The notes below the pieces were generated by a model. That model was not told where the DNA came from and did no database searches. It saw nothing but the letters and a program-made list of their open reading frames with translations. Source: Actinokineospora sp. NBRC 105648 (GTDB lineage: Bacteria > Actinomycetota > Actinomycetes > Mycobacteriales > Pseudonocardiaceae). Taken from it: a DNA stretch of 64,000 nt. The translations under genes were made by a program, and so were the position numbers. This document shows positions 16,152 through 43,848 of the stretch, in pieces (the stretch's first letter is position 1; every line of letters begins with the position of its first letter). The stretch lies in the NCBI RefSeq assembly GCF_030269645.1, contig NZ_BSTR01000017.1:62001-126000 (forward strand), written 5' to 3'.

Positions 16152-16292
16152 GCTCGATCTAGTGAACTCGCTTCGTGTGGGGCCCCTAGAGCACCGCGGT
16201 GGTGAAAAAAGGGCGGGTGAAGGGCATTCCCCACCACCGGTCAAGTTTAGCGGTGCTCTCCCCCCACACGAAGCGAGTCCACTAGATCGAGC
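16152..16292 (-). repeat. Hairpin element, copy A
   Basis: A 141-bp element whose 31-bp ends (16152-16182 and 16262-16292) are inverted with one mismatch. Inside lies a second stem (GAGCACCGC with GCGGTGCTC), a conserved CGCTAAACTTG and a T-tract. Read on the minus strand it is almost identical to copy B at 37320. On its 5' side in that orientation (16300-16350) is one AACCGCAGCGG hairpin unit; on its 3' side are conserved CCCGCACTTACCCGGGCAAC and GGGCAACGAAGACGGC. It lies between convergent genes. Confidence 0.9.
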
Positions 16293-16450
16293 ATCCGTAG
16301 CGGGCCTTGCGTTCCAGCGGGGTCGGCCTCTCCGCTGCGGTTTGGTGGGGGTCTGGTGTCCATGGTTGCTGGCATCAGCGAGCCTGGCTGCGGTGGGTGC
16401 TGGGTGGTGGGTGGGGCTGTTGCTGGTCCTCTTTCTTGGAGCTCCTCTCC

Positions 16451-16490
16451 CTTCCCTTCCCTTCCCTTCCCTTCCCTTCCCTTCCCTTCC
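16451..16490 (+). repeat. CTTCC pentanucleotide microsatellite
   Basis: Eight perfect CTTCC units, flanked by near-matches on both sides (CTCTCC, CCCTC). The opposite strand is GGAAG-rich. It lies just downstream of the minus-strand membrane protein gene. Confidence 0.9.
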
Positions 16491-16517
16491 CCCTCTTCCT
16501 TTCCTCCGCGCTTTGGG

Positions 16518-16904
16518 TCACATGCGGCCTGGGCGCATGATTCCGGCTGCCAGGACCAACATGCTCCCGAACGTCGCGTTCCACACCCCCACCTGCAGGT
16601 CGCCGATGTCCACGACCTCCCGGGCCTGCCACACCCAGACACCGCAGGTCAGGACCAGGAGTACGCCGCCTAGTTGGAGGATTCCCTTGGAGCGGACCAC
16701 TCCCACCACGGCGAACAGGGCGCCCAGGGCCAGTGGCAGCAGGATCGAGGTCAGGGCCGTGGCCGTCTCCCGTTGGACGCCCACGAACAGGTCGCTCAGC
16801 GGCAGTGTGTTGCCCGGTCGGTCCTCGTACCACGACCGGAAGGTCCCGTAGCCGACGAACCCGACGCCGACCAGGCTGAGGGCTACTGAGATCAGTGCGC
16901 GCAC
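16518..16904 (-). CDS. Four-helix membrane protein
   Basis: A 128-residue protein with four predicted transmembrane helices (about residues 3-22, 52-68, 76-92 and 108-123) and an extracytoplasmic loop SWYEDRPGNTLPLSDLF between helices 1 and 2. No family was recognised. ATG at 16904. The pentanucleotide repeat and element A lie downstream. Its promoter must lie between it and the Bax-inhibitor terminator. Confidence 0.7.
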   Translation of the reverse strand: MRALISVALSLVGVGFVGYGTFRSWYEDRPGNTLPLSDLFVGVQRETATALTSILLPLALGALFAVVGVVRSKGILQLGGVLLVLTCGVWVWQAREVVDIGDLQVGVWNATFGSMLVLAAGIMRPGRM

Positions 16905-16968
16905 GTCGTCGACTCTAGGGCTCTGGTGGCACGACGGGAACCGCGGCGATGACCCCAGGAGCGCGAAA

Positions 16969-17008
16969 GGGAACAGGGCGCCCGGCTGGTGCCGGACGCC
17001 CTGTTCCC
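16969..17008 (-). terminator. Terminator of the Bax-inhibitor-like gene
   Basis: GGGAACAGGGCG (16969-16980) and CGCCCTGTTCCC (16997-17008) form a perfect 12-bp stem. Read on the minus strand it follows the stop codon by about 13 bases and is followed by TTTCG. Confidence 0.85.
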
Positions 17009-17021
17009 TACTTCGCTAGCG

Positions 17022-17831
17022 TCACTCGCTGCTCTGCAGCATGTACAGCAGGCGCAGGATCTCCAGGTACAGCCAGACCAGGGTGGTCATCAGGCCGAAG
17101 GCGACGTACCAGGCGAACTTGGCCGGGGTGCCGCTGCGGATGGCCTGGTCGGCCATGTCGAAGTCGAGCAGGAAGTTGAACGCGGCGATGCCGATGAACA
17201 GCAGGCTGATGCCGATGCCGAGCGGGCCCGCCTCGCGCAGGCCGGTGTTGACGCCGAAGAGCGAGAGCACCAGGTTGACCAGCATGAGGCCCGCCGCCGC
17301 GACGGTGGCGCCGATGATCCACTTGGTCAGCTTGGGGGTGACCTTGACCGCGCCGGTCTTGTAGACGACCAGCATGGTCACGAACACCAGGGCGGTACCC
17401 AGGATCGCCTGGAAGGCGATGCCCGGCACGAAGGCTTCGAACACCCCGGTGATCGCCCCGAGGAACACGCCCTCGGCGGCGGAGTACGCCAGGATCAGGG
17501 CCGGGCTGGTGCTCTGCTTGAAGATCACCACGAGGGAGAGCACCAAGCCGACGATGGCGCCGCCGATGACCAGCGGGTAGGGGGGCACGCTGCGGCTCAG
17601 GACCGCGATGGCGGTGATGACGCCGATGACCAGCGCCACCCCGAGGGTCGTCGCGGTCTTGGTGACCACGTCGTCGACGGTCATCGGTCGGTCGTTGCTC
17701 GCCGCAGGCGGCGCGGGGTAGCCGCCGTACCCGGGCGGGCCCGGCTGCTGGTAGCCCTGGGCCTGGGGCTGGAAGCCCGCGTATCCGCCGCTGGGCAGCT
17801 TGCGGAACGCGGGGTTGCTGGTAGAACGCAC
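17022..17831 (-). CDS. Bax inhibitor-1/YccA family membrane protein
   Basis: A 269-residue protein with a Gly/Pro/Tyr/Gln-rich cytoplasmic N-terminus (residues 1-50, YGGYPAPP) and seven hydrophobic helices from about residue 65 on. The family signature sits in VFVTMLVVYKTG, and a conserved Asp-rich turn lies in FNFLLDFDMADQAI. The length and tail match the actinobacterial Bax inhibitor-1 branch, integral membrane proteins linked to ion leakage and stress. The GTG start at 17831 is chosen because AGGAGG lies just upstream. Confidence 0.92.
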   Translation of the reverse strand: MRSTSNPAFRKLPSGGYAGFQPQAQGYQQPGPPGYGGYPAPPAASNDRPMTVDDVVTKTATTLGVALVIGVITAIAVLSRSVPPYPLVIGGAIVGLVLSLVVIFKQSTSPALILAYSAAEGVFLGAITGVFEAFVPGIAFQAILGTALVFVTMLVVYKTGAVKVTPKLTKWIIGATVAAAGLMLVNLVLSLFGVNTGLREAGPLGIGISLLFIGIAAFNFLLDFDMADQAIRSGTPAKFAWYVAFGLMTTLVWLYLEILRLLYMLQSSE

Positions 17832-18258
17832 CTGATCCTCCTGGGCCTGAATGGCGCCTGCACCACGGTCAACGATCGAGCCTGCCAACCGGTTCCCGGT
17901 GGGTAAAACCTACTTTACCCACACTCGGCTCAACGCCGGGGCGCGACAGGCGATTCCCGGACCGGCGCGTAGCGTGATCATGCTGGCTGGAAGTTACGCC
18001 GTTCGTGCGGTAACGCCCGGGTCGGGTCGAAGTCGACCTGGGCCGATGCCGGGGTGTGATCTCGATTCGCGCTCCTTCTGGCGGATTGCCTCATCCGCTC
18101 GAACGCAGCAGGCTCGCAGCAGTGCGCGCCCTGTGCCCGTCCGGTCACTAGCGGTGGCCCGGCGTTCCCCGGTACGCGGCCCACACCGCCAGGAGATCCA
18201 CGCACTTCAAGCGCCGACGGCGTGCGCTGCCGCGGCGCGGCAAGGAGCCGACTGCACA
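17832..18258. promoter_or_regulatory. Divergent intergenic region with a palindromic operator-like site
   Basis: 427 bases between the Bax-inhibitor-like gene and the wall-protein gene. GTGGGTAAA (17899-17907) and TTTACCCAC (17914-17922) form perfect 9-bp half-sites with a 6-base spacer, 68-91 bases upstream of the Bax-inhibitor start. The remainder shows no further gene or repeat; the open frame running into the wall-protein gene lacks a start signal. Confidence 0.6.
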
Positions 18259-19722
18259 ATGGGGCGAACCACACTGGGTGCCCGGCTGGTCGCGGGGGTG
18301 GCGGGCGCGGCAGTGCTGTCCGCCGCCTTCACCACCGCCGCCGCGCCTACCGCCGTCGCCACCGTCCAGCCGGGGCTGGGCATCGCGACACCCGCCCAGC
18401 CGTACAAGAACAACCCGGAGCCGACCGACTGGCTGGGGTCCTACACCGTCGACGGCAAACAGGTCTGGTGCGTCCAGTACGCCTACCTCGCCCCCGACTC
18501 CGACGAGCCCTACCGCGGCGGTGAGCCGCTCAAGACCAAGTGGGGCACCGAGCTGGACGGCACGGTCGCCGCGGACATCTCGTACCTGCTCTTGCGCTAC
18601 TCCGACACCAAGAGCGTCGACGAGGCCGCCGCGCTGGCCCACCTGCTGCACTCGTGGACCGCGGCCCCGCAGACACCCGACCAGCTCCTGCCGACCAACG
18701 ACTTCCGGCACGTCGCCTACGACGTGCCGTTCCACCAGAACGCCCTGGCCCAGAAGAGCGCGGGCGCGGTGGCCGCGGTCGACCGGCTCAAGGCGGACGC
18801 CACGGCCAACCACGGCCCGTGGACCGCGGCGCTGACCAAGCCGACGAAGCCGCAGGTCATCGGCACCGCCGACACCTGGACCGTCGAGGTCCGCAACGCC
18901 AAGACCGGGGTGGGCAAGGTCCCGGTCAAGATCACGCTGACCGACGCGACCGTGGACGGCAAGACCACCGCCACCCTCAACACCAAGGACGACGGCAGCG
19001 GCATCGCGCTGCAGGTCACCCCGACCGGGCCCAAGCCCGCGGTGGCGATCTCGCTGCTCAGCCCGGCCGACCGCCCGGTCGTGCGGCCCGCCGCCGACGA
19101 GAACACCCAGCGGGTGGTCAGCACCGGTGGTGAGAAGGAGCTCACCGCGCGCGAGGACACCACGGCCACCACCGCCCCGGGCAACGCCGCGGTGACCAAG
19201 GTCGACGAGAAGACCGGCAAGGGCATCGCCAAGGTGTCCCTGCGCGTCACCGCCGCCGACAAGACCGCCCCCGCGGTCGGCCAGGACGGCAAGCCGCTGC
19301 TCGGTGCCGACGGCAAGGCGCTGGTCGTGGTGACCGGTGACGACGGCAAGGCGGTCGTGCCGAACCTGCGCACCCCGCAGGAGATCTGCGTGGTCGAGGT
19401 GGCCGCGCCCGCGGGCTACGAGCAGTCGTTCGACCCGAACGCGCCGCCGTCGGCGTGCGGCAAGGTCGACCCGGGCGGCACCCTCGAGCTCAAGGTGGCC
19501 AACAAGCCCAACGTCCCCACGGTGCCCAAGACGATCCCCGCGGGCGAGAACCCCGCCGTAGCGGCTGCCGCGCTGGTGGACGAGAGCGGTCCTTCCACCG
19601 GCCTCTTGGTCTCGTTGGGTGCTCTGCTGCTCTTGGCCGCCGGTGCGGGCGCCACGCTGGTCCGCCGGGCCCGTGGACCGCAGGTCGTCGGCCGCAAGAT
19701 GCGCAAGGACTGGGGGCACTGA
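18259..19722 (+). CDS. Surface protein with thioester-like N-terminus, SpaA-type domain and sorting signal
   Basis: A 487-residue exported protein. A signal peptide (residues 1-30) precedes a domain with WCVQYAYLAPDSD (about 70-82), which resembles the thioester-domain region of actinomycete surface proteins; confirmation is needed. A SpaA/Cna-B-like beta domain (TKVDEKTGKGIAKVSLRV to VEVAAPAGYE, about 312-430) follows. The C-terminus has GPSTG (444-448), a 20-residue hydrophobic helix and a 19-residue basic tail. That is a sorting-signal layout with a non-canonical motif in place of LPxTG. AAGGAG lies 11 bases before ATG 18259. The sortase gene follows after five bases and is the likely anchoring enzyme. 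Confidence 0.85.
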   Translation: MGRTTLGARLVAGVAGAAVLSAAFTTAAAPTAVATVQPGLGIATPAQPYKNNPEPTDWLGSYTVDGKQVWCVQYAYLAPDSDEPYRGGEPLKTKWGTELDGTVAADISYLLLRYSDTKSVDEAAALAHLLHSWTAAPQTPDQLLPTNDFRHVAYDVPFHQNALAQKSAGAVAAVDRLKADATANHGPWTAALTKPTKPQVIGTADTWTVEVRNAKTGVGKVPVKITLTDATVDGKTTATLNTKDDGSGIALQVTPTGPKPAVAISLLSPADRPVVRPAADENTQRVVSTGGEKELTAREDTTATTAPGNAAVTKVDEKTGKGIAKVSLRVTAADKTAPAVGQDGKPLLGADGKALVVVTGDDGKAVVPNLRTPQEICVVEVAAPAGYEQSFDPNAPPSACGKVDPGGTLELKVANKPNVPTVPKTIPAGENPAVAAAALVDESGPSTGLLVSLGALLLLAAGAGATLVRRARGPQVVGRKMRKDWGH

Positions 19723-19727
19723 CGGGC

Positions 19728-20492
19728 ATGGCTCGCCGAGGCTCCAAGCTCGCCCCACTCGCCACGGCGGGTGGGGCGGGCGCTCTTGTCGTGTTGATCT
19801 GCGCGTTGAACATCTCCCCCGACCGGGTGGTAGGTCTACCGCTGCCCGGTCAGGCGGGGATGTCCGCGGCCGATGTCCGCAAGGCGGCGGCGGACAGCAA
19901 GTCCGTGCTCGCCGAGATGCAGTTGCAGGTAAAGCCCGCGCCCACCGCGGCGCCCTCCGCGGTGCCCCCCGCGCAAGCCCCAGCCGCACCGCCTGACCAG
20001 CCCGCCAACCAACCCGCCCCGCCCGCGCCCAAGCCCGCGGCCCAGCCCGCCGGGCAGAAGCCGGGCACGCTGCGGCTGGCCAAGGGCGGGACGGCCACTC
20101 TGGTCCGCAAGGAGCTCAGCGCCGACGCCACGCTGCCGGTGCCCAGCGGTGTCCGCGAGGCCACCTGGTGGGGCGCCGGGCTGGACGCGGCCCAGGGCGC
20201 CACCGTCTTCGCCGGGCACGTGAACTGGAAGGGCCAGACCGGCCCGTTCGCCGAGCTCTGGGACGCCCGGACCGGTGACGCGGTGTCCGTTGTGGACGCA
20301 GCGGGGCGGCAGTGGCGCTATCGTGTCGCGCGGGTGGAGACAGTCGACAAACGCCACCTCCCGGACCGTGCCGAGGAGTTCTTCGGCCAGGCGGGCGCGC
20401 ACCGGCTGGTGCTGGTGACCTGCGGGGGCCAGTGGGTCGGTGGGCAGGACGGCTATGAGTCCAACCGCGTGGTGATCGCTCTTCCGGAGTGA
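19728..20492 (+). CDS. Class F sortase
   Basis: A 254-residue membrane-anchored transpeptidase. One N-terminal helix (residues 12-30) and a Pro/Ala-rich spacer (70-112) precede the catalytic barrel. The triad is H164 (FAGHVNW), C232 (LVTCGG) and R247 (ESNRVV), with the TLVTC-like context of actinobacterial class F enzymes. It cleaves sorting signals and links proteins to the wall. The gene directly follows its probable substrate, so the two form an anchoring unit. ATG at 19728, GACGGGC upstream. Confidence 0.93.
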   Translation: MARRGSKLAPLATAGGAGALVVLICALNISPDRVVGLPLPGQAGMSAADVRKAAADSKSVLAEMQLQVKPAPTAAPSAVPPAQAPAAPPDQPANQPAPPAPKPAAQPAGQKPGTLRLAKGGTATLVRKELSADATLPVPSGVREATWWGAGLDAAQGATVFAGHVNWKGQTGPFAELWDARTGDAVSVVDAAGRQWRYRVARVETVDKRHLPDRAEEFFGQAGAHRLVLVTCGGQWVGGQDGYESNRVVIALPE

Positions 20493-20553
20493 TCCACACG
20501 ACCTGGTGGCACCACATCGTGTCGTTGGGCCACTGTCGACCGTGGTGTAACTA

Positions 20554-20574
20554 CCGTGGGCAACGAGCCCACGG
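20554..20574 (+). terminator. Hairpin after the sortase gene
   Basis: CCGTGGGC (20554-20561), loop AACGA, GCCCACGG (20567-20574): a perfect 8-bp stem between the sortase and deacetylase genes. It may instead be an operator because no T-tract follows. Confidence 0.5.
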
Positions 20575-20628
20575 CGTACGCGTCTATCCGTTCGGGAGGA
20601 ACACACCGCAGTCCATCGGGGAGGACAC

Positions 20629-21768
20629 ATGGGGATCCGCAGGCGTTGGGAGACCGTCGGGATCGGCGCTGGTCTGGTGCTGACCTTCGTCGTCTTGCTG
20701 GTCCTGGGCACCGTCCGGCCGGACGAACCGGGCAAGCCGGTGCCCGTCGGCGCCCCGAGCCCGCAGGCCGCACCCGGTCCACAAGGGCCGCCCGCGTGGA
20801 TGCGCAAGCTCAATCCGGGAGAAAAGCCTCCCCAATTCGTGTTGTTCTCCTTCGACGGCGCGGGTTCGCACGAGCACTGGCAGCGGTTCTTGCCGCTCGC
20901 GCGCAGTGTGAACGCGCATTTCTCCGGCTTCCTTTCCGGCATCTACCTGCTCGACGACTCGCAGAAGGCCGATTACACCGGTCCGGGGCACAAACCCGGC
21001 AAGGCGTCGATCGGTTTCGGCGGTTCCCCTGATGACGTGCGCGCGCTGATCGGCGACCTGAACACCGCCGCGGCGCAGGGCCACGAGATCGGCACGCACT
21101 ACAACGGCCACTTCTGCCAGGGTGCCGAGCCCAGCGTCGGCCGGTGGAGCACCGCGCAGTGGAACAACGAGCTCGACCAGTTCTTCGGCTACGTCGACCG
21201 GGCCGGTCCGCTCGGCCTCAAGATCGACCCCAAGGCGATCCGCGGCGGTCGCACGCCGTGCCTGGAGGGCCGCTTCGACCAGCTCTTCCCGGCGCTGGCG
21301 GCCCGCGGCATGGACTACGACTCCAGCCAGGTCTCCGACGGCCTGGCCTGGCCCGCGCTGCAGTCCGGCGTCTGGGAGTTCGCCATGCCCACCGTCCGGG
21401 TGCCCGGTCTGGGGTACAAGAAGACGATCATGATGGACTACAACTTCTGGTTCTCGCTCAACCGCGCCAAGGACGAGCCCGCCCGGGCGCCGGAGTTCAC
21501 CAAGATCGTGCTGGACACCTACGAGCACGTGTACCAATCCGCCTACGCGGGCAACCGGGCCCCGATGGTCGTCGGGAACCATTTCAACCAGTGGTCCGGC
21601 GGCGCGTTCATCACGGCCACCGAGAAGTTCATGGGTGAGGTCTGCGGAAAGCCGGACACCGTGTGCGCCACCTACAGCGAAGTCATCGAATGGATGAAGT
21701 TGCAAGACCCGAAAGTACTTGACAGTTACCGTATGCAGCCGCACGCCCAGGTGATCGCGCCGAACTGA
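20629..21768 (+). CDS. Polysaccharide deacetylase-like exported protein
   Basis: A 379-residue protein with an N-terminal membrane anchor (residues 8-29) and a Pro-rich linker. Its domain resembles the NodB/polysaccharide deacetylase fold: FVLFSFDGAG (about 70-79) is in the place of the TFDDG motif, and GHEIGTHYNGHF (about 147-158) supplies the His pair of the metal site. FSFDG holds a single Asp rather than two, so metal binding may be altered. The substrate is probably a cell-surface glycan. ATG 20629 follows GAGGACAC. Confidence 0.8.
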   Translation: MGIRRRWETVGIGAGLVLTFVVLLVLGTVRPDEPGKPVPVGAPSPQAAPGPQGPPAWMRKLNPGEKPPQFVLFSFDGAGSHEHWQRFLPLARSVNAHFSGFLSGIYLLDDSQKADYTGPGHKPGKASIGFGGSPDDVRALIGDLNTAAAQGHEIGTHYNGHFCQGAEPSVGRWSTAQWNNELDQFFGYVDRAGPLGLKIDPKAIRGGRTPCLEGRFDQLFPALAARGMDYDSSQVSDGLAWPALQSGVWEFAMPTVRVPGLGYKKTIMMDYNFWFSLNRAKDEPARAPEFTKIVLDTYEHVYQSAYAGNRAPMVVGNHFNQWSGGAFITATEKFMGEVCGKPDTVCATYSEVIEWMKLQDPKVLDSYRMQPHAQVIAPN

Positions 21769-21853
21769 TCACATTCGAGTGGTGGAAGTTGCGTTGGGAA
21801 ATGACAACCGATACCACTATGAGGTCCCATTTCCCCCTCCGTGGAGACCTCCC

Positions 21854-22813
21854 GTGAAGATCGCCTTCGTCGGCAAAGGGGGCAGCGGCAAGACAACCCT
21901 CGCGTCGCTGTTCCTGCGCCACCTCGCCGCCGAGCGGCCCGCACCACCCGTGCTGGCCCTCGACGCGGACATCAACCAGCACCTGGCCGCCGCGCTCGGC
22001 GCCCCGGAGTCGCACTCGATGCCGACCCTGGGCACCAACCTGCCGCGCATCAAGGACTACCTGCGCGGTGACAACCCGCGGGTGCCGTCCACCGACGACA
22101 TGATCAAGACCACCCCGCCCGGCGCGGGCTCGCGGCTGATCGGCGTCGACGACGACAACCCGCTCTACCGCGACCTCGTCCACGAGGTCGAGGGCGTCCG
22201 GCTCGCCGTCACCGGCCCGTTCGCCGAGTCCGACCTCGGCGTGTCCTGCTACCACTCCAAGATCGGCGCGGTCGAGCTGCTGCTCAACCACATGGTCGAC
22301 GGGCCGCGCGAGTACGTCGTGGTCGACATGACCGCGGGCGCCGACTCGTTCGCCTCCGGCCTGTTCACCCGCTTCGACGTCACCTTCCTGGTCTGCGAGC
22401 CGACCGTGCGCAGCGTCGGGGTCTACCGGCAGTACCTCGAGTACGCGCGCGACTTCGACGTGCGCGTCGCGGTCATCGGCAACAAGATCATCGACGCCGA
22501 CGACCTGGGCTTCCTGCGCGAGCACGTCGGCCGCGACCTGCTCGCCTGGGTCGGCCGCTCCGACCACGTCCGCGCCGCCGAGCGCGGCGAGGTTCGCCCG
22601 ATCGAGGCCCTGGAGACCGAGAACCGGGTGGCGCTGCGGACCATGCGCGAGCTCGTGGACGGCGTCGAGCAGGACTGGACCCGCTTCCACCGCCAGACCG
22701 TCGAGTTCCACCTGCGCAACGCCGCGGCCTGGGGCAGCGACCGCGCGGGCCGCGACCTGGCCGACCAGGTCGACCCCGACTTCGTGCTCGGCCCGGTCCC
22801 GCTCGCCTCCTGA
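21854..22813 (+). CDS. CooC/ParA-like P-loop ATPase
   Basis: A 319-residue ATPase of the SIMIBI class with a deviant Walker A at the extreme N-terminus (KGGSGKTT, residues 8-15). The intrasubunit Asp lies in ALDADINQ and a Walker B-like VVVDMTAG at about residues 158-165. It resembles CooC, the nickel-insertion accessory ATPase, and anion-pump-like ATPases more than chromosome-partitioning ParA, and no parB is nearby. No Ni enzyme is visible in the window. The GTG start at 21854 is chosen because the P-loop is normally at the N-terminus and GGAG lies eight bases upstream. Confidence 0.85.
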   Translation: MKIAFVGKGGSGKTTLASLFLRHLAAERPAPPVLALDADINQHLAAALGAPESHSMPTLGTNLPRIKDYLRGDNPRVPSTDDMIKTTPPGAGSRLIGVDDDNPLYRDLVHEVEGVRLAVTGPFAESDLGVSCYHSKIGAVELLLNHMVDGPREYVVVDMTAGADSFASGLFTRFDVTFLVCEPTVRSVGVYRQYLEYARDFDVRVAVIGNKIIDADDLGFLREHVGRDLLAWVGRSDHVRAAERGEVRPIEALETENRVALRTMRELVDGVEQDWTRFHRQTVEFHLRNAAAWGSDRAGRDLADQVDPDFVLGPVPLAS

Positions 22814-27061: not shown

Positions 27062-27958
27062 ATGGCTTCCCAACAGGATCGTGATCACGTCGGCTTCACG
27101 GTCGTGCGGCACGGGTTCGACCGCGCACAGGTGAAGCAGCACATCCAGGACCTCGAAACCACCGCCACCACCGCGCTCGCCCAGCGCGACGAGGCGGTGG
27201 CCAAGGCCGAGGAGCTGGCCGGGCAGCTGGAGCTGGCCCGCCGCGAGATCGATGCCCTCAACGCCCGACTCGACAAGATCGGCACCGCCGCCGCGGCGTC
27301 GTCGGCGCCGAACGCGCCCGAGCGCTCGGCCCGGGCGGACGTGGTCGCCAAGGCCCAGGCCGCCGAGATCACCAGCCGAGCCCAAGCCGCCGCCGACACG
27401 GCGTGGTCGGCAGCTGAAGAGGCCTCGACAGCCCTGCGCGAGCGCTACCGCCGCCTGCTGGCCGAATTGGACAAGCAGCACACCGAGATCCACGCCGCCC
27501 ACAAGACGATCATGGATGAGGCCCGGGCCAAGGTGGATCAGATGACCACCGTCGCCGAGCAGCGCCAGCGCGAGGTCGACGAGCGGGCCGAACGCGAGCG
27601 CCAGCGCCTCGAGCAGCAGTTCCAGCAGGACCTCACCAGCAAGCGCGACCACCTCGCCGAGGAGATCGCCGCCGCCCACAGCGCCGCCGAGCAGGAGGCC
27701 GACCGCCGCCTCCGCGCCGCCACCGACGAGGCCGACAAGCGCATCGCCACCGCCACCAGCCACGTCGAACAGCTCACCGCCCTGCGCGAACAGCTCGCCG
27801 GACGCCTCCGGGGCACCTCGGACCTGCTCGACCAGAGCGCGAAGCTGCTCCAGCCGATCGAGGCCGAGGCCGAACTCGACCAGCTCCCGTTGTCCGCTGA
27901 GCCTCCGGCTGCCCAGACCCAGCCGGTCCGCAAGCCGCAGAAGGCCCCGGCCCGCTAG
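27062..27958 (+). CDS. Coiled-coil protein with DivIVA-like N-terminus
   Basis: A 298-residue cytoplasmic protein. The N-terminus (VGFTVVRHGFDRAQVKQHIQDLE, residues 9-31 in part) resembles the DivIVA/Wag31 N-terminal motif that binds curved membrane. About 220 residues of charged, Ala/Glu/Arg-rich coiled coil follow, then a Pro/Ala-rich tail ending KPQKAPAR. Such proteins act in polar growth or septum organisation; the exact role is not known. ATG 27062 has no strong ribosome-binding site. The last 130 bases of the gene are repeated three times downstream as decaying non-coding copies. Confidence 0.8.
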   Translation: MASQQDRDHVGFTVVRHGFDRAQVKQHIQDLETTATTALAQRDEAVAKAEELAGQLELARREIDALNARLDKIGTAAAASSAPNAPERSARADVVAKAQAAEITSRAQAAADTAWSAAEEASTALRERYRRLLAELDKQHTEIHAAHKTIMDEARAKVDQMTTVAEQRQREVDERAERERQRLEQQFQQDLTSKRDHLAEEIAAAHSAAEQEADRRLRAATDEADKRIATATSHVEQLTALREQLAGRLRGTSDLLDQSAKLLQPIEAEAELDQLPLSAEPPAAQTQPVRKPQKAPAR

Positions 27959-37108: not shown

Positions 37109-37129
37109 TTACGGCAAAGCCAAACGAAA

Positions 37130-37158: not shown

Positions 37159-37203
37159 CTTCTTTTAGATCCGTACGCGCAGACTCCACGGATCCGCCCA
37201 CGA

Positions 37204-37319
37204 CCTTGACCCAACCGCAGCGGAAATGCCGACACCGTTGGAACGCAAGAGAATTCCGCCCTCCAGCAAACCGCAGCGGATAGGCCGACCCCGCTGGTAC
37301 CGCCGGCCCCGCTACGGAT
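37204..37319 (+). repeat. Two hairpin units preceding element copy B
   Basis: AACCGCAGCGG occurs at 37213 and 37269, a period of 56 bases. Each unit forms the small palindrome CCGC-A-GCGG inside a wider CCAGC-to-GCTGG pairing. The second unit leads into CGCTACGGAT and the 140-bp element. Confidence 0.8.
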
Positions 37320-37459
37320 GCTCGATCTAGTGGACTCGCTTCGTGTGGGGGGAGAGCACCGCTAAACTTGCCGGTGGTGGGGAATGCCCTTCACCCGCCC
37401 TTTTTTCGCCACCGCGGTGCTCTAGGGGCCCCACGCGAAGCGAGTTCACTAGATCGAGC
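37320..37459 (+). repeat. Hairpin element, copy B
   Basis: A 140-bp element, nearly identical to copy A in reverse orientation. Outer stem: GCTCGATCTAGTG... paired with ...CACTAGATCGAGC; inner stem: GAGCACCGC with GCGGTGCTC. Conserved CGCTAAACTTG and TTTTTT tract inside. Downstream flank CCCGCACTTACCCGGGCAAC matches copy A, and a CAACGAAGACGGC string follows twice. Confidence 0.9.
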
Positions 37460-37499
37460 CCCCGCACTTACCCGGGCAACCCAGGGCCGCAAAACCCCC

Positions 37500-37600: not shown

Positions 37601-37706
37601 ACGCAGCAGCACCAGAGGCGCAGGCCCCCCCATCCGGACCTATCCCACGCCCCAACAACCACCCTACCGTCGGATGATCCACCCACCAGACGATCGGAGA
37701 CCCCTC

Positions 37707-37961
37707 GTGCCCCGTCGCTCCATCGCCGCCGCGTTCGTGACCGGTGTCCTGGCCGTGCTCCTGTTGCCCGGCACCGCGAACGCCACCCAGAGCATCATCT
37801 TCACCAAGGTCGGCCCGTTCCAGACCAACGAGGCCTGCGTGTACTCCAAGAACCGCGACATCATCGAGGGCCAGTACCTGATCTACCCCGGTCTGGGCGC
37901 CGACTGCGACCACGAGGCGAGCGGCTACTACTACCACAGCGGCGAGTGGCAGAACGGCTGA
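37707..37961 (+). CDS. Small secreted protein
   Basis: An 84-residue protein with a clear signal peptide (residues 1-26, cleavage after ANA) and a mature part of about 58 residues with two Cys (ACVYSK and ADCDHE) that may form a disulfide, and an aromatic-rich end (YYYHSGEW). No family was recognised. GTG start at 37707, CGGAGA upstream. It lies between element B and a bidirectional hairpin. Confidence 0.75.
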   Translation: MPRRSIAAAFVTGVLAVLLLPGTANATQSIIFTKVGPFQTNEACVYSKNRDIIEGQYLIYPGLGADCDHEASGYYYHSGEWQNG

Positions 37962-37977
37962 CCGCCACCCGGCTGCC

Positions 37978-38002
37978 GGGGTGCGCTGACTCAGCGCACC
38001 CC
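37978..38002. terminator. Bidirectional terminator between convergent genes
   Basis: GGGGTGCGC (37978-37986), 7-base loop, GCGCACCCC (37994-38002): a perfect 9-bp stem that can extend to 12 bp. It serves the small secreted gene on the plus strand and the lyase on the minus strand. Confidence 0.75.
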
Positions 38003-38012
38003 GCGCGCCAGG

Positions 38013-40826
38013 TCAGCTGACGACCTCCAGCACTGGCCGGTTCGCCCCCGCCTCCCGTTGGTCCAGGGTCACCCCGAACGCGCCGCCGGACAGGCCGAGG
38101 GACACCGTGCCGTGGTTCGCCCGCACGAACGACGTCACGTCCAGCCCGATCCAGTCGGCGCGCGCGCTGATCCGGCCGGTCGCCAGCGGGGCGCCGAGCG
38201 TGGGCTGGTTGTTCCAGGTCACTCCGGTCTCGGTCCACGCCCCGGTCGCCCCGTGCGCCGTCACGGTGGAGTGCGTGCTCTCGCTGTCCGTTACCCGGCC
38301 GTGCACCCACAGCACGGCGCGCTTGGGCACCGTGGCCAAGCCCAGGTCGAACCGCAGGAACGACCGACGCGCGTAACCCACCGCCGCGGTCTTGACCACC
38401 AGCGCGGCGGTCGCGAAGTTCTGGTCGGCGTAGCTGCCGTCGCGCACGTAAGCGTCCTCGACCGGGCTGAAGGTGGAGGCGGTGCCCGTGGACACCGCCG
38501 ATCCCGTGCCGAGTCGCACGATCCGGGTCGCGCCGAGGGTTCCGCCGACCTCGACCAAGAGCTTGGTGGTGGGGGAGGTCTGCAACACGGTCACCCCAGG
38601 GTCGGCCGTGGCCGTCGCGAAACCATTGTCCGACAACGTGACGGTCACCGTGGTCGCTAGCCGGGTCGGGTCGGCGACAGCCACGCTCAGCACGGCACCG
38701 TCCTGCCGGACCAGCACCGAGCACGGGCCGTCCGCACTGATTGTTCCGCACGTGCCCGCCGCGAAGAAGTTCGCCGCGCGTACCGTCCCCGCCGAGATCC
38801 CCTGCGTGGTCGCGGTGTTCGCCACCACGGTCACGCCGGGGGACGCGCTGCGGGCGGCGGTGGTCGCGTCCGTGGCGCCAGGCAGCAGTAGGTACGCGTA
38901 GGAGGCGTTCACCGGGTTCGTGCCGTGGTCGTGCCACAACGTGAGGTAGCGCCGGGTGATCGCGTCGGCCGGGCCGTCGGTGTCGATGGTGGCCCACGAG
39001 CCGGTGCGGGCGGCCCGGGCCGCGGTCACGGTCGCGCCGCCGAGGAACACGTACCCGCCGAACCCGGCGATCGCCGCCCACTGCGCGCCGGTGAACTTCT
39101 TCGACCACCCGAGCGTGCCCGGCTGGGTCGCGCCGTCGACGACCAGGGCGTTCGTGCCCGCCGCACCGAGGTTGCGGTTGTCCACAATGGAATCAACAGA
39201 AGCGCCGTCGGTCGCGGTGATACCCGCGCCCAGGCACACTACCGCGTCATCGAGGCAGAACCACGACTTGCGGCCGGTCAGCGTCGACTGCAGGCCGGTG
39301 ACGTGCTGGCCGATCGCCGACGCCACGCCGTCGGACGCCCCGCCCGCCCAGGTGTTGGTCGGCATCGTGGCGTTCCACTCGCCGCCCGCCGCGTCCGCCA
39401 GCGGCTTGCGGGACGCGGTCACTCCTGGCAGCCGGTAGGGGTCCACAGTGGGCCAGAACGCGTCCGAGTACTGGTCGGCGCCGTAGTCCTGGCCCCACCA
39501 GTACGTCATCCCGCTGCCGGTGTGCCAGCCGCGCAGGTTCTCGCCGTTGCCGGTCTCGTAGAACGTCGTGCGGTTCGAGTGCATCGACACCGCGAAGGTC
39601 CACAGTGGACGACGATGCACGGCGCGGTCCATCGCCGCGAACACCCGGCTCGAGGTCGGGTGCGCCGCGGCGGGCACGCTCCCGTCGGCCAGCAGCGCGC
39701 GCCCCCGGGCGAGATCCGGGACCAGTAGGTGGTCCTCGTAGGGCGAGTAGGTGTCGCGGGTGATCCAGCCCTTCGCCAACCCCCGCCAGCGGTTCGACTC
39801 GGTCGGCGAGGCCAGCCCGGTCGAGGCCAGGAGCAGCACCGCGGCGATGACCGCGTGCCCACGCCGGTGGTCGCTCTGGTCGGACCGGGCGATCCCCCGG
39901 CCGGACACCCCGTCGACGATCAGTCCATTGTGGATGAGCGGCGCGAACGCCGAGTCCACCGAGTCGAACAGCGCCTGCCGGTTCGGGTCCGTCACCGCCC
40001 AGGTCGACCCGGCGAGCAGGTGCAGCACCCGGGAGAGCCCGCCGAGCAGCACCACGCCGTACCCGCCCGCGTAGGGCACCGAGTCGTGCTGGACGAACGA
40101 ACCGTCGGAGTACAGGCCGTCCCCGGACAGCACCGGCGGGAACACCGGCGACAGCGCGTCACGGGCCGCGGCGATCTTGGCCGCGTCCTCGCCGAGCACC
40201 CCGCGCAACGCGACCACCTGGCACAGGTCGACCCGGTTCGCGCCGGTGCTCGTGTCTGTGTACGCCGAGAGCCGTGAGACCGGTACGTGGTAGTCCACGG
40301 CGGCGAGGTGGTCGGTGAGCTGCGTGCCGGGCAGCGCCACCAGGAAGCAGGTGTCCAGCAACTTCTGCGGGGCGCCGATCTGCCAGTCCCACCAGTTCCC
40401 GTAGGGGCTTCTCGTGGCGCTGTAAGCATTGTTCTGCATCCACTCCAGCCCGTCCAGGACCGCGGTGGACATGACCGGTGAGTTGGTGTGGCCGGTGCCG
40501 GGCTGGGCGTAGGCCAGCGCCATCGTGCGCAACCGGGCGTAGGAGCTGGTGACGTTGGCCGACACGGTGCCGATCGGGTACTCCGGCCAGAGACCCGATC
40601 CCGTGGTGCTCATCGTGCTCTGGTAGTTCAGGGCCGCGTTCCCGGTGGCCACCAACGCGGTGTGGAACGGTTCGGCGGCCGGGTCGTACCCGGTGCCGGT
40701 GAGCAGATCGCGCCACCTCGTGCGCAACGCGTCGTAGGGCGCCGTGGCGAACGCGGGCACGTTCGCGCCCAGCGCCACCGCCACCACCGATCCGGCGAGC
40801 AGGAATCCCCTTCGGGACACACCCAT
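38013..40826 (-). CDS. Family 8 polysaccharide lyase with C-terminal DNRLRE-like domain
   Basis: A 937-residue secreted lyase of the hyaluronate/chondroitin/xanthan lyase family. A twin-arginine signal (SRRGFLLAG) is at the N-terminus. The helical toroid has N197 (GANRVD), H247 (VQHDS) and Y256 (GGYG), with gaps of 50 and 9 residues as in the Asn-His-Tyr triad of pneumococcal hyaluronate lyase. WWDWQIG lies at 145-151. The central part is the family's beta-sandwich. Residues 780-937 (YVRDGSYADQN, FDLG, WNNQP) are a DNRLRE-type carbohydrate- or wall-binding domain. It should degrade an acidic polysaccharide outside the cell; substrate cannot be fixed. Confidence 0.93.
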   Translation of the reverse strand: MGVSRRGFLLAGSVVAVALGANVPAFATAPYDALRTRWRDLLTGTGYDPAAEPFHTALVATGNAALNYQSTMSTTGSGLWPEYPIGTVSANVTSSYARLRTMALAYAQPGTGHTNSPVMSTAVLDGLEWMQNNAYSATRSPYGNWWDWQIGAPQKLLDTCFLVALPGTQLTDHLAAVDYHVPVSRLSAYTDTSTGANRVDLCQVVALRGVLGEDAAKIAAARDALSPVFPPVLSGDGLYSDGSFVQHDSVPYAGGYGVVLLGGLSRVLHLLAGSTWAVTDPNRQALFDSVDSAFAPLIHNGLIVDGVSGRGIARSDQSDHRRGHAVIAAVLLLASTGLASPTESNRWRGLAKGWITRDTYSPYEDHLLVPDLARGRALLADGSVPAAAHPTSSRVFAAMDRAVHRRPLWTFAVSMHSNRTTFYETGNGENLRGWHTGSGMTYWWGQDYGADQYSDAFWPTVDPYRLPGVTASRKPLADAAGGEWNATMPTNTWAGGASDGVASAIGQHVTGLQSTLTGRKSWFCLDDAVVCLGAGITATDGASVDSIVDNRNLGAAGTNALVVDGATQPGTLGWSKKFTGAQWAAIAGFGGYVFLGGATVTAARAARTGSWATIDTDGPADAITRRYLTLWHDHGTNPVNASYAYLLLPGATDATTAARSASPGVTVVANTATTQGISAGTVRAANFFAAGTCGTISADGPCSVLVRQDGAVLSVAVADPTRLATTVTVTLSDNGFATATADPGVTVLQTSPTTKLLVEVGGTLGATRIVRLGTGSAVSTGTASTFSPVEDAYVRDGSYADQNFATAALVVKTAAVGYARRSFLRFDLGLATVPKRAVLWVHGRVTDSESTHSTVTAHGATGAWTETGVTWNNQPTLGAPLATGRISARADWIGLDVTSFVRANHGTVSLGLSGGAFGVTLDQREAGANRPVLEVVS

Positions 40827-41071
40827 GTCATCAACCTCTCGTCCGCACCGTCCGCGCAGGCGCGCGACTTGGTGAAGATCACCGATGACTGAACGCCCCC
40901 GACCGCGCCTTGGTTGCTCGGGGAGACGAGATCGTTCCGGCCATCCGGTCTAGACCTCCGGGTAACCCGCCTTGGCTGTGTGCGCGTGAGCCTGCGTTCA
41001 GTGTGACTCGGCCGACCAGACTCGGACGCCCCGCCGTCGCGGCGGTAGTGTCGGTTGGGGGTGTCCGAATC

Positions 41072-42019
41072 ATGAAGATCGTGTTGCCCGGTGGGACCGG
41101 GAACGTGGGTGGTTTCCTCAGCCGGTCGCTGGCCGCGGCCGGGCACGAGGTCGTGGTGCTGACCAGGCGGGCCGGGGTCGACCTCGGTGCCGGGGTGCGC
41201 TCGGTGCGCTGGGACGGGCGCTCGCTCGGGCCGTGGGCGCACGAGCTCGACGGGTGCGCCGCGGTGGTCAACCTGGCCGGGCGCAGCGTCAGCTGCCGCT
41301 ACACCGAGGCGAACCTGCGCGAGATGATGGCGTCGCGAGTGGACTCCGCGCGGGTGGTCGGCGAGGCGATCGCCGCGGCCTCGGCACCGCCGCGGGTGTG
41401 GTTGCAGATGAGCACCGCGACGATCTACGCCCACCGGCACGACGCGGCCAACGACGAGGCGACCGGCGTCATCGGTGGCACCGAGCCGGGGGTGCCGGGG
41501 TACTGGGCGTTCAGCGTCGAGATCGCCAAGCAGTGGGAGCTCGCCCAGGAGCGGGCGTCGACACCCGCGACGCGCAAGGTGGCGCTGCGGACGGCCATGG
41601 TGATGAGCCCGGACCGGGGGAGTGTCTTCGACGTCCTGTCCTGGATGGCCCGGCTCGGCCTCGGCGGCCCGGTGGCGGGCGGGCGGCAGTACGTGTCCTG
41701 GATCCACGACCGCGACTTCCTCCGCGCGGTCGAGTTCCTGCTCGCCAGGGACGACCTGGCCGGCCCGGTCAACCTGGCGGCGCCAGACCCGGTCCCCCAG
41801 CGCGAGTTCGCCCGCACCCTGCGCCGGGCGTGGCGGAGACCGGTCGGCCTGCTGGCGACGAAGTGGATGGCCGAGATCGGCGCGTTCGCCCTGCGGTCCG
41901 ACACCGAACTACTGCTCAAGAGCCGCCGAGTCGTCCCGGGCCGCCTCTCGGACGCCGGTTTCACCTTCGACTTCGCGCGCTGGGAGGACGCTGCCGCCGA
42001 CCTCGTCCAACGGCGTTGA
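41072..42019 (+). CDS. TIGR01777-type NAD(P)-dependent epimerase
   Basis: A 315-residue extended short-chain dehydrogenase. The N-terminal nucleotide-binding motif GGTGNVGG lies at residues 7-14. VVNLAGRSVSCRYTEAN is typical of the TIGR01777 family, and a C-terminal DUF1731 helical domain (LSDAGFTFDF) follows. The usual YxxxK is replaced by FSVEIAKQWE, as in many family members. The substrate is unknown. ATG 41072. Divergent from the lyase. Confidence 0.9.
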   Translation: MKIVLPGGTGNVGGFLSRSLAAAGHEVVVLTRRAGVDLGAGVRSVRWDGRSLGPWAHELDGCAAVVNLAGRSVSCRYTEANLREMMASRVDSARVVGEAIAAASAPPRVWLQMSTATIYAHRHDAANDEATGVIGGTEPGVPGYWAFSVEIAKQWELAQERASTPATRKVALRTAMVMSPDRGSVFDVLSWMARLGLGGPVAGGRQYVSWIHDRDFLRAVEFLLARDDLAGPVNLAAPDPVPQREFARTLRRAWRRPVGLLATKWMAEIGAFALRSDTELLLKSRRVVPGRLSDAGFTFDFARWEDAAADLVQRR

Positions 42020-42035
42020 CGCCCTGCTGCGGGGA

Positions 42036-43016
42036 TCAGAAAACGGCGAGCAACGGCGGCAGCGCCGCGAGGACCAGGATGGCCGCCACGTTCGCGCGGC
42101 GGTACTGGGCGAGCAGGGCAACGAACTCGCGCAGGAACGCACTCGGCACGAAGTACGACGCCGTCCGGGCTCCGACGACGTGGACCCGCAACCGCAGCTG
42201 TCGAGCGAGCACCGCTGTTCGGAACACGTGGTAGTTGTTGGTGACGGCCAGGATGGTGCCCGCGCGCCCGTGCTCGGCCAGCAGCTCCATGCTGTAGCGC
42301 AGGTTCTGCTCGGTGGTCGCCGCCTTGCCCTCCAACAGGATCCGCTCCGCGGGCACCCCGTTCGCGCGCAGGTAGGTGCCCATCGCCTCGGCCTCGGAGA
42401 CCTGCTCGTCGGACCCCTGCCCACCAGAGACCACCAACACCGGATCAGTCTCGGCCGCGTGCGCACGGCACTCCACGGCCCGATCGAGCCGATTCGCCAA
42501 CAGCGGCGGCACACTGTCACCGTCAAGGCCCGCGCCGAGCACGATGATCGCGTCCGCCTGCCTGCCGCGCCCGAGCCTGCCGTAGAGCACCGAATACACG
42601 AGCAGCGCGGCGAACAGGAACGCGAGATACCCCGCCACCAGCACCAACGACGTCACTCCGACAGCCAACCACCGCGGCCCACCAAACCCGATGGTCGCTG
42701 CGGTCACCCCGAACAGGCCGAGCATCGCCAGACCCGCGAGCAGGGACAGGAGGTTCCCGAGCGTGTGCCCCTCCCTACGCCACATCACGACACCGTTGGC
42801 GACCAACGCCCAGGGCAACACCAGCCCAACCAACACCCCGACCACCACCGCGCTGTCCCGCAGCCAAGGGACACCCGAGAGCGAGTCCAGCAACCACAGC
42901 CCACCGAACACCACGGCAAGGCCCAGCCACACGGCGTTACCGAGCCGCCTCGGCTCCCGGTAGACCCGATAGACGAAGATCACTGCCGCCACCAGGGCGA
43001 GCAACGCGAAAGCCAT
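42036..43016 (-). CDS. YdcF/DUF218 membrane protein
   Basis: A 326-residue protein with about five N-terminal transmembrane helices (1-150), followed by a DUF218/YdcF domain (IIVLGAGLDGDSVPPLLANRLDRA; VVSGGQGSDEQVSEAEAMGTYL; TEQNLRYSMELL; TNNYHVFRT). A final hydrophobic helix lies at about 305-322. YdcF-like proteins are envelope proteins suspected of a nucleotide- or S-adenosylmethionine-binding role. The gene runs towards the epimerase. Upstream is the repeat cluster with elements C and D. Confidence 0.92.
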   Translation of the reverse strand: MAFALLALVAAVIFVYRVYREPRRLGNAVWLGLAVVFGGLWLLDSLSGVPWLRDSAVVVGVLVGLVLPWALVANGVVMWRREGHTLGNLLSLLAGLAMLGLFGVTAATIGFGGPRWLAVGVTSLVLVAGYLAFLFAALLVYSVLYGRLGRGRQADAIIVLGAGLDGDSVPPLLANRLDRAVECRAHAAETDPVLVVSGGQGSDEQVSEAEAMGTYLRANGVPAERILLEGKAATTEQNLRYSMELLAEHGRAGTILAVTNNYHVFRTAVLARQLRLRVHVVGARTASYFVPSAFLREFVALLAQYRRANVAAILVLAALPPLLAVF

Positions 43017-43199
43017 GGTCCTCCGTCACCCCGATACCACCCCACCGCCACTCGAAGCCAGGGATGGCTTGAAACCGCGACGGTAGCACCGCACCAGCGA
43101 GCACGGACCACAGGCAAGTTCCCCGCCAACTGTCCCTTCCAAACCTAGTCGCGACACTGCACGGCTCGCTGGTAGGCAACAGGATCCCTACCTCGCCCG

Positions 43200-43458
43200 G
43201 TGAGCAAGGGAATCCAGCCCCGCTAATACCCAGCGGAATCCCGACCCCACTGGTACCACAGCAGATAGGCTGACCCCGCCGCACGCGACAGGGTCCTGTC
43301 CCCCAGCAAACCGCAGCGGTGAGGCCGACCCGCTGGCACCCGACAGGGTCCCGTCCCCAGTAAACCGCAGCGGATAGGCCGACCCTGCTGGCACCCGAGT
43401 GAATCCTGCCCCCCAGCAAACCGCAGCGGTGAGGCCGACCCCGCTGGAACGCAACGCC
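43200..43458 (+). repeat. Array of about five ~55-bp hairpin units
   Basis: Units with CCCAG(C/T)AAACCGCAGCGG start at 43302, 43356 and 43412 (periods 54 and 56); two earlier, more divergent units lie at about 43213 and 43257. Each contains CCGC-A-GCGG and a wider CAGC/GCTG pairing, then a variable CACCCGACAGGGTCC-like link. The last unit leads through CGCTACGGAT into element C. Confidence 0.8.
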
Positions 43459-43468
43459 CGCTACGGAT

Positions 43469-43607
43469 GCTCGATCTGGTGGACTCGCTTCGTGTGGGGG
43501 GAGAGTGCCGCTAAACTTGCCGTGGGTGGGGATGCCCTTACCCTGCCCTTTTCTCTCCACCGCGGTGCTCTAGGGGCCCCGCACGAAGCGAGTTCACTGG
43601 ATCGAGC
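43469..43607 (+). repeat. Hairpin element, copy C
   Basis: A 139-bp element in the same orientation as copy B. Some outer-stem changes (ATCTGGTG against CACTGGAT) turn pairs into G-T/T-G, which pair only as G-U in RNA. The inner stem GAGTGCCGC/GCGGTGCTC also has G-U-type pairs. The CGCTAAACTTG segment is unchanged. Flanked by the hairpin array on its 5' side. Confidence 0.85.
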
Positions 43608-43709
43608 CCCTCATCTTTTCCTCGGGCAACCCCAGCGATGAGCCGCCGAAGACGGTCGACCGTAGGTCGGTGTGCGGCACACCCCACGAGCTGCCCAAGT
43701 AAGAGCAGG

Positions 43710-43848
43710 GCTCGATTGGCTGGACTGCCTTCGCGCGGGGCCCCTAGGCGACCGCGTGGGGAAAAAGCGTGGGGAGAAGGGCATCCCCACCACTGGTCAA
43801 GTTTAGCGGTCGCCTCCCCCCACACGAAGACAGTCCACCCAATCGAGC
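43710..43848 (-). repeat. Hairpin element, copy D (diverged)
   Basis: A 139-bp element in reverse orientation, 102 bases from copy C. Read on the minus strand, the outer stem is GCTCGATTGGGTGGACTG with CAGTCCAGCCAATCGAGC, and the inner stem is GGCGACCGC with GCGGTCGCC. Both differ from A-C on both sides of the stem in a compensating way, while CGCTAAACTTG and GGGGATGCCCTT are kept. Only a fragment of a hairpin unit (GCTGGTACGCA) is present beside it. Confidence 0.85.

What the first reader, a model, noticed from the sequence alone, without database searches (positions are those of the whole stretch)
16152..43848. Family of four ~140-bp intergenic hairpin elements with a conserved core
Copies at 16152-16292 (minus), 37320-37459 (plus), 43469-43607 (plus) and 43710-43848 (minus) share 24-31 bp inverted ends, an inner stem, an unpaired CGCTAAACTTG and a T-rich segment. 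Copies A and B are almost identical although 21 kb apart and in opposite orientation, which means recent copying or conversion. I do not recognise the family. A structured RNA, a non-autonomous mobile element or a chromosome-organising repeat are all possible.
Basis: partly seen in the sequence, partly recalled or inferred. Interest (0 to 1): 0.88.

Follow-up and report, generated by a model that had tools for sequence, protein, structure and literature searches.

The report
High-copy folded hairpin repeat in Pseudonocardiaceae
The four repeats belong to a previously unnamed family of about 140-base hairpin elements, present in hundreds of copies in this genome, whose sequence changes from species to species while the folded shape of one strand is kept.

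Summary
The hairpins belong to a family with 276 exact core matches in the own 8.43-Mb genome (reversed control 0), perhaps 400 copies with variants. The genus is Actinokineospora: 15 of 16 genomes held match, as do 35 of 327 of the family (11 of 46 genera). No Rfam family matches.

Species differ in stem sequence but keep pairing: in 18 diverged copies 27 of 41 pairs change on both sides. Mismatches favour G·T over A·C (131 to 4 cells), so one defined strand, RNA or DNA, is under selection. Two bulges persist; the 5' one (TANNCT-type) has TT 16-18 nt upstream, like a promoter.

Copies favour gaps between convergent genes, avoid divergent gaps and often form face-to-face doublets. The nearest relative is in the same genome for 43 of 45. 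Low-copy relatives sit on some Streptomyces pSAM2-type elements and plasmids and a small Kutzneria plasmid, pointing with rep where a rep is near.

I read it as a non-autonomous mobile element whose working form is the folded strand, possibly a single-strand initiation site. RAYT and reverse transcriptase are not general partners. Activity and mobiliser are untested.

The parts
16152..16292 (-). hairpin element, copy A (solo), between convergent genes 15307-16026 (+) and 16518-16904 (-)
   Evidence: relatives G119, G045 and G457 have from an overlap to 34 bp between the orthologous genes
37320..37459 (+). hairpin element, copy B (solo)
37320..37350 (+). copy B, left arm of outer stem P1
37340..37345 (+). 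copy B, -35-like TTCGTG inside P1 (weak match), 17 nt before the -10-like bulge
   Evidence: inference
37353..37362 (+). copy B, left arm of inner stem P2
37363..37368 (+). copy B, unpaired 5' bulge TAAACT (TANNCT-type, -10-like)
37376..37407 (+). copy B, P3 hairpin followed by a T run, terminator-like on the element strand
37414..37423 (+). copy B, right arm of P2
37424..37428 (+). copy B, conserved 3' bulge AGGGG (TAGGGG with the last base of P2)
37429..37459 (+). copy B, right arm of P1
43469..43607 (+). hairpin element, copy C, left half of a face-to-face doublet
43710..43848 (-). hairpin element, copy D, right half of the doublet (102 bp from C)
   Evidence: terminator-like hairpin at 43790-43769
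37285..37319 (+). upstream flank box shared by many copies (..CGCTGGNACGC..CCCGCTACGGAT)
37460..37485 (+). downstream flank box shared by many copies (CCC..TTAACYYGGGCAAC)

Best explanation
Each repeat is one copy of a non-autonomous mobile element of Pseudonocardiaceae. Its working form is one defined strand folded into a rod: outer stem P1, 3' bulge (T)AGGGG, inner stem P2, 5' bulge TANNCT, then a terminal hairpin P3, in about half of the families followed by T. SHOWN: the fold, its strand, its compensatory evolution, the copy number, the species-specific subfamilies, intergenic placement and doublets. INFERRED: copies spread within a genome because a trans-acting enzyme recognises the folded strand; the unpaired TANNCT with TT 16-18 nt upstream lets RNA polymerase start on the folded single strand, so the element works like a single-strand initiation site (sso or Frpo type), making a short RNA that ends at P3. 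Its relatives on pSAM2-type integrative elements and small plasmids would be the functional form, and the chromosomal copies a dispersed population tolerated mainly between convergent genes.
For: Copy number: 276 exact cores, control 0; 57 full elements found by model R3 in a 1.25-Mb sample. Structure: 50 own copies, 99.4% of pair cells standard; 18 diverged copies, 27 of 41 pairs changed on both sides, covariation 0.573 vs 0.202 shuffled; 23 hits from several genera, 37 of 41 (alignment fitted to the model). Strand: G·T 131 cells vs A·C 4 and 30 vs 6 (16 further cells there are other mismatches); the element strand also folds better with DNA energies in 4 of 4 window copies. Promoter geometry: 'TT' lies at spacer 16, 17 and 18 in 0.55, 0.66 and 0.45 of 29 representatives, at 15 and 19 in 0.24 and 0.21, elsewhere (6-14, 20-26) in at most 0.14; promoter score 13.9 vs 11.3 (sd 0.26) for mononucleotide shuffles and 11.1 for the other strand, 31 representatives. 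Mobility: nearest neighbour in the same genome for 43 of 45; the copy A site is nearly closed in three relatives. Mobile-element relatives: RepSA units and plasmids; where a rep gene is in the segment, element and rep point the same way at 5 of 5 loci with strong hits and 2 of 2 with weak ones.
Against: RepSA does not track the element: 0 of 18 RepSA neighbourhoods from other Pseudonocardiaceae genomes carry it. G320, G462, G463 and G466 have the element without RepSA, and G464 has RepSA without it. Of 11 plasmid segments chosen by RepSA alone only 2 have weak hits (E 4e-4 and 8e-4); pIJ101 has none. The -35-like motif is poor in several families, including the main own subfamily and most of the plasmid forms on which the sso idea rests, and the tool's strict sigma-70 scan found no promoter around copies B, C and D. 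Representatives are related, so the shuffle test overstates independence. TANNNT was found in 21 of 31 chromosomal representatives, not all. A hand tally of 27 elements in three one-contig relatives (positions), assuming that coordinate 1 is near oriC (not checked), gives 13 on the leading and 14 on the lagging strand, no bias. Insertion boundaries and target duplications were not resolved.
Confidence: 0.4

Rival explanations
1. A structured RNA in the 3' regions of genes: read-through RNA from the upstream gene folds into the rod and is terminated at P3 or protected from decay. Copies between convergent genes, and face-to-face doublets, serve both genes.
For: G·U-type wobbles favoured on one strand. 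20 of 147 convergent gaps but 1 of 149 divergent gaps hold a cluster (Fisher p 5e-6). Solos in tandem gaps point with the genes 11:2 in the own genome. Terminator-like hairpin plus T run on the element strand in copies B and D.
Against: In the named Actinokineospora sample the tandem bias is 7:5, i.e. absent. T runs of 4 or more occur in 16 of 31 representatives only. Copy B lies about 155 bp behind a predicted ordinary terminator of the upstream gene. A stem kept at 31 bp and relatives on transferable replicons are not explained.
Confidence: 0.25
2. A REP/BIME-like repeat moved by an HUH-type single-strand transposase that recognises the hairpin and its bulges; the promoter-like bases are incidental.
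For: Intergenic hairpins, inverted doublets at fixed spacing (12 '+-' gaps of 82-102 bp), strand-specific fold with fixed bulges, species-specific expansion.
Against: No Y1/RAYT (PF01797) in any of the 11 searched genomes that carry the element or are of the same genus; the one hit among 16 genomes is G007, which has no element match. Units are 140 nt, several times a REP. RepSA, an HUH protein, does not track the element. Y2_Tnp: 0 of 16, but the control was silent, so inconclusive.
Confidence: 0.2
3. An ordinary MITE: a deletion derivative of a DDE-transposase element recognised as duplex terminal inverted repeats.
For: Long terminal inverted repeats, high copy, intergenic.
Against: The terminal sequences change between species while pairing is kept, and the most conserved parts are internal (TAGGGGCCCC, TANNCT). 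Selection for G·T over A·C pairs makes no sense for duplex end recognition. No target duplication was resolved. No search for a transposase gene with the same ends was made.
Confidence: 0.08
4. A chromosome-organising or topology element (BIME-like) acting as duplex DNA between convergent genes.
For: Preference for convergent gaps.
Against: A duplex-binding site would not show strand-specific wobbles; sites differ between species.
Confidence: 0.05

Closest known systems
Single-strand origins and ssDNA promoters (sso of rolling-circle plasmids, ICEBs1 sso1; Frpo/ssi of F-type plasmids)
   Same: A folded single strand on transferable replicons with promoter-like hexamers. Passages of PMC4595007 and PMC11541004 describe folded ssDNA recognised by RNA polymerase, the latter with -35 and -10 elements in the fold. 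The plasmid and AICE copies point with rep where a rep is near.
   Different: Hundreds of chromosomal copies; no gene or rep attached to these; no model match in pIJ101; activity untested.
REP/BIME/REPIN repeats
   Same: Intergenic palindromes in inverted pairs, avoiding divergent gaps, with species-specific families.
   Different: 140 nt with bulges instead of a short hairpin; no RAYT or Y1 gene. REP features recalled.
ERIC/IRU and other enterobacterial repeat units (RU-1 127 bp; start of the abstract of PMC2759123 seen in the listing)
   Same: Size class, intergenic, multiple copies, compared to MITEs there; palindromic nature of ERIC recalled.
   Different: Other phylum; no sequence comparison made; no strand-specific covariation known to me.
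pSAM2-type AICEs (RepSA, PF20199)
   Same: Some Streptomyces units carry a relative of the element.
   Different: Most RepSA units examined here lack it.

Membership tests
any Rfam family | reaches a family's gathering score | tested here: not met
   only a tRNA in the whole window; (window 43300-43960 only): best 29.7 bits to MIR1437 against a gathering score of 168
REP/BIME (RAYT-mobilised) | Y1/RAYT transposase gene in the genome | tested here: not met
   PF01797 in 1 of 16 genomes (G007); none in the 11 that carry the element or are of the same genus (8 of the genus, G060, G089, G019)
REP/BIME (RAYT-mobilised) | intergenic palindromes, often inverted pairs | tested here: met
   12 '+-' and 2 '-+' doublets, no '++' or '--', among 43 clusters
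REP/BIME (RAYT-mobilised) | short hairpin with GTAG-type foot (recalled) | tested here: not met
   units are 138-150 nt in the genus; the base of the hairpin in own copies reads GGAT before GCTC, no GTAG
MITE (DDE type) | conserved terminal inverted-repeat sequence | tested here: not met
   termini differ between species; pairing and internal bulges are conserved
MITE (DDE type) | target-site duplication | tested here: inconclusive
   relatives too diverged to see the boundaries
MITE (DDE type) | autonomous partner with the same ends | not tested
   no search for a transposase flanked by these ends was made
single-strand origin / ssDNA promoter | one specific strand folds | tested here: met
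single-strand origin / ssDNA promoter | -35 and -10 hexamers at about 17 nt in the fold | tested here: inconclusive
   spacing peak at 16-18, but the hexamers are weak, poor in most plasmid forms, and the strict scans found none
single-strand origin / ssDNA promoter | present on rolling-circle or conjugative replicons, same direction as rep | tested here: inconclusive
   same direction at 7 of 7 loci that have element and rep; but only 2 of 11 RepSA-chosen plasmid segments (weak) and 0 of 18 non-G000 Pseudonocardiaceae RepSA neighbourhoods carry it
single-strand origin / ssDNA promoter | primes or transcribes from single-stranded DNA | not testable with these tools
   needs in vitro transcription or an ssDNA accumulation assay
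retroelement-mobilised RNA | reverse transcriptase in the genome | tested here: not met
   PF00078 in 3 of 16 genus genomes (G000, G466, G467); 12 of the 15 element-bearing ones have none
intrinsic terminator | GC hairpin followed by T run | tested here: inconclusive
   present in copies B and D; T run of 4 or more in 16 of 31 representatives

The most novel reading that the evidence does not exclude
A group of Pseudonocardiaceae carries hundreds of dispersed folded single-strand initiation sites per chromosome, descended from or shared with the single-strand origins of pSAM2-type conjugative elements: a self-spreading promoter or primer hairpin that needs no gene of its own.
Probability: 0.2. 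Interest if true: 0.88.

Novelty: new variant of a known kind. Interest (0 to 1): 0.63.

Why it matters
It adds a large, apparently undescribed class of dispersed repeats in a family of antibiotic producers, with unusually clear compensatory evolution between diverged copies. If the folded strand starts transcription or DNA synthesis, it would link plasmid single-strand origins to a chromosomal repeat population and give a testable case of how gene-less hairpins spread. It also matters practically: many contigs of the own assembly begin or end close to an element.

Tried and rejected
Rfam at gathering threshold (whole window) and permissive threshold (43300-43960): nothing. RAYT/Y1 as mobiliser: absent from carriers searched. 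Reverse transcriptase: in 3 of 16 genus genomes, so not general. Y2_Tnp: no hit, but the control genomes also gave none, so no conclusion. RepSA units as general carriers: rejected for Pseudonocardiaceae. pIJ101 as a known rolling-circle plasmid: no R3 match. Phage records: no blastn match to the AICE form; the genus pattern in viral contigs: 0. G739 hits in the phylum scan are nearly perfect palindromes of about 60 bp of another kind, set aside by eye; L205 (G479) looks like a chance hit. The core-only pattern is not a useful probe outside the own species: of 397 genomes of the order, only G000 has many matches and 6 others have one each. The first, narrower model R1 matched 7 of 120 family genomes. 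Alignments A2, A3, A4 and A5 were not used for counts: A2 mixes both strands, and in A3-A5 MAFFT misregisters the 30-bp-arm families. Finding insertion boundaries by aligning four intergenic regions failed.

Counts to read with care. The genome search scored only 9-40 candidates per genome with these queries, so per-genome numbers there are floors. The 57-element census takes the better strand of each place and leaves out two truncated hits (L143 1-106, L132 144-227). The 1.25-Mb sample is not random: C8 and C13 were chosen because one search listed many copies there. Gene calls come from my own ORF caller trained on this genome. The 400-copy figure is my scaling: 276 exact cores times 57/38, where 38 exact cores lie in the sample. 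The representatives were picked by me, one to four per genome or genus. Of the 20 plasmid records with a RepSA-type gene I fetched 11 by that criterion; three others were already at hand through the element.
Full report
What was checked. Each is 139-141 nt with 31-nt outer arms and a 10-bp inner stem, and folds 9-12 standard deviations better than dinucleotide shuffles as RNA. With DNA energies the strand that reads TAAACTTG is the more stable one in all four (-55.2 vs -53.0, -52.7 vs -48.0, -43.7 vs -36.0, -51.6 vs -42.1 kcal/mol).

How many there are. The exact 11-mer CGCTAAACTTG occurs 276 times in the own genome (G000, 8.43 Mb, 149 contigs), and the same letters read backwards 0 times. In 1.25 Mb of G000 (and the window) a structure-only finder gave 51 elements and 0 on reversed sequence. 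It also showed subfamilies with other loops (GCTAGCCTG, TGCAAACTC, CGTAAACTTG). Model R3 gave 57 full elements in the same sample. Scaling 276 by 57/38 suggests roughly 400 copies; this is an extrapolation from a non-random sample.

Who has it. With model R2, 15 of 16 same-genus genomes and 35 of 327 family genomes (11 of 46 genera) have matches. At least one of these (G479) looks false by eye. Across the phylum, R3 matched 5 of 346 genomes: G000, three of one other genus with one match each, and one whose hits are a different palindrome. blastn later showed three places in one of the three, G883.

Anatomy and selection. In 50 own copies 99.4% of pair cells are standard and 12 of 41 pairs change on both sides (shuffles 7.3). 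In 18 diverged copies from five genomes of the genus 97.6% of cells pair, 27 of 41 pairs change on both sides, and covariation is 0.573 against 0.202 shuffled and at most 0.111 with slid partners. In 23 hits spanning several genera the figures are 97.4%, 37 of 41 and 0.743 against 0.182; that alignment was fitted to the model, which favours it. Mismatches tell the strand: G·T 131 cells against A·C 4 in the 50 own copies, 30 against 6 across genera, with 16 cells of other mismatches. Cells are not independent events, but G·T is spread over 17 pair columns and A·C over 5 in the second set. What stays fixed is less the ends than two bulges: (T)AGGGG, in other genera AGAGG or AGGGT, before the right arm, and TAAACTT / TAAGCTT / TAGCCT / TACCCT after the inner stem. 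A terminal hairpin P3 follows, often with T-rich bases. Two flank boxes (about 35 bp before, about 25 bp after) recur with the hairpin, so the unit is about 200 bp.

A promoter-like geometry. Anchored on the 5' bulge of 29 of 31 chromosomal representatives, 'TT' sits at spacers 16, 17 and 18 in 55, 66 and 45% of them, at 15 and 19 in 24 and 21%, and at most 14% at spacers 6-14 and 20-26. Examples are TTGACT-15-TAAACT, TTTACA-16-TAAACT, TTGATT-16-TAAACT and TTGTCT-17-TAAACT. The score is higher than in mononucleotide shuffles (13.9 vs 11.3, sd 0.26, 0 of 300) and than on the other strand (11.1). The representatives are related, the hexamers are often weak (also in the main own subfamily and in most plasmid forms), and a strict scan sees no promoter in the windows around copies B, C and D. 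I treat this as a lead, not a demonstration.

Where copies lie. In the G000 sample 57 elements form 43 clusters: 29 solos, 12 '+-' doublets with gaps of 82-102 bp and 2 '-+' doublets. Of 39 placed clusters (4 are at contig edges) 20 are in convergent gaps, 18 in tandem gaps and 1 in a divergent gap, against 147, 559 and 149 adjacent gene pairs (convergent vs divergent p 5e-6). Solos in tandem gaps point with the genes 11 to 2. In the named-species sample 35 of 50 placed clusters are convergent, 2 divergent, and tandem solos are 7 to 5. So avoidance of divergent gaps is solid, while the orientation bias is weak (pooled 18:7, p 0.04).

Movement. In a set of 50 elements of the genus, those of one genome average 76% identity, those of different genomes 54%, and the nearest relative is in the same genome for 43 of 45. 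At copy A's site the orthologous genes are nearly adjacent in G119, G045 and G457 (from overlapping to 34 bp by my gene calls), while G000 has 491 bp between them including the element. Downstream of the ortholog of the gene at 27104-27958, G463 and G467 have an element and G462 and G465 give no R3 hit, although the neighbouring genes agree in size and orientation (not compared by sequence). Each of the two filled sites resembles another copy of its own genome (91%, 95%) more than its ortholog (88%), although the G463 site is nearer still to a G465 copy (94%). This fits movement, conversion or both; boundaries and target duplications were not resolved.

Relatives on mobile elements. The phylum-scan hits of G883 and G747 lie in pSAM2-type integrative elements with RepSA (PF20199, E 9e-154 and 2e-92), FtsK-type transfer and integrase genes. 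The third, G821, does not obviously. blastn found the sequence in 19 plasmid records, 18 Streptomyces and one Kutzneria, the latter an 11.6-kb plasmid; only four of the 19 cover 60% or more of the query. No phage record matched. R3 confirms 9 places at E below 1e-7 in 8 of 22 segments and two weaker ones. At the seven loci with a replication gene nearby (L314, L315, L337, L338, L339 strong; L344, L347 weak) element and rep point the same way. Against a general role there: 11 segments chosen by RepSA alone gave only those two weak hits, and of 20 Pseudonocardiaceae RepSA neighbourhoods only one, from G000, has elements, 0 of 18 from other genomes. RepSA presence does not follow element presence.

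Reading. The safest statement is a dispersed, evidently mobile or converting element whose selected form is one folded strand. My preferred mechanism is a single-strand initiation site of the sso/Frpo kind. It accounts for the strand, for a pre-opened TANNCT bulge with upstream TT at promoter spacing, for a pausing hairpin, and for relatives aligned with rep on rolling-circle elements. It does not explain why hundreds of copies sit in chromosomes, nor what moves them. A 3'-end RNA is the strongest rival and rests on gene context and terminator-like hairpins. RAYT and reverse transcriptase are not the general partner.

Literature. I searched the held open-access papers for palindromic, MITE-like and structured-RNA repeats in this family and for single-strand origins and saw no description of this family in the listings. 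I saw passages only of PMC4595007, PMC11541004, PMC3218068, PMC3583192, PMC2864571 and PMC3469384, and search listings otherwise. REP, ERIC and pSAM2 background beyond these is recalled.

Noticed in passing
43200-43460: Degenerate tandem units (..CCGCAGCGGNNAGGCCGACCCCGCTGG..) upstream of copy C; CCGCAGCGG occurs 110 times in the 1.25-Mb sample, only 28 of them within 350 bp of an element found by the structural finder, which suggests a second repeat family.
   Followed up: partly
16450-16495: A CCCTT microsatellite lies in the same intergenic region as copy A.
   Followed up: no
L352:1967-2112 and blastn hits H14-H18: Relatives or partial matches of the AICE form lie about 0.1-2 kb from the ends of several linear Streptomyces plasmids.
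   Followed up: no
L214, L219, L221 (G739): Nearly perfect palindromes with arms of about 60 bp (AAATTTAGGGGACAGGCCCCAAACTTGCAGG..) at three places in a small distant actinobacterial genome; a different family with a chance-like resemblance.
   Followed up: partly
contig ends of G000 (e.g. C1:161-301, C7:57-67, C13:8-18, C17:178-188): Many contigs of the own assembly begin or end within about 300 bases of an element, so the copy number is probably undercounted.
   Followed up: partly
38013-40787 (-): Polysaccharide lyase family 8 with a CBM96 module beside copy B.
   Followed up: no
L337 (NZ_CP130632.1): The record's description says Streptomyces sp. NL15-2K while its organism field says Kutzneria buriramensis.
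   Followed up: no
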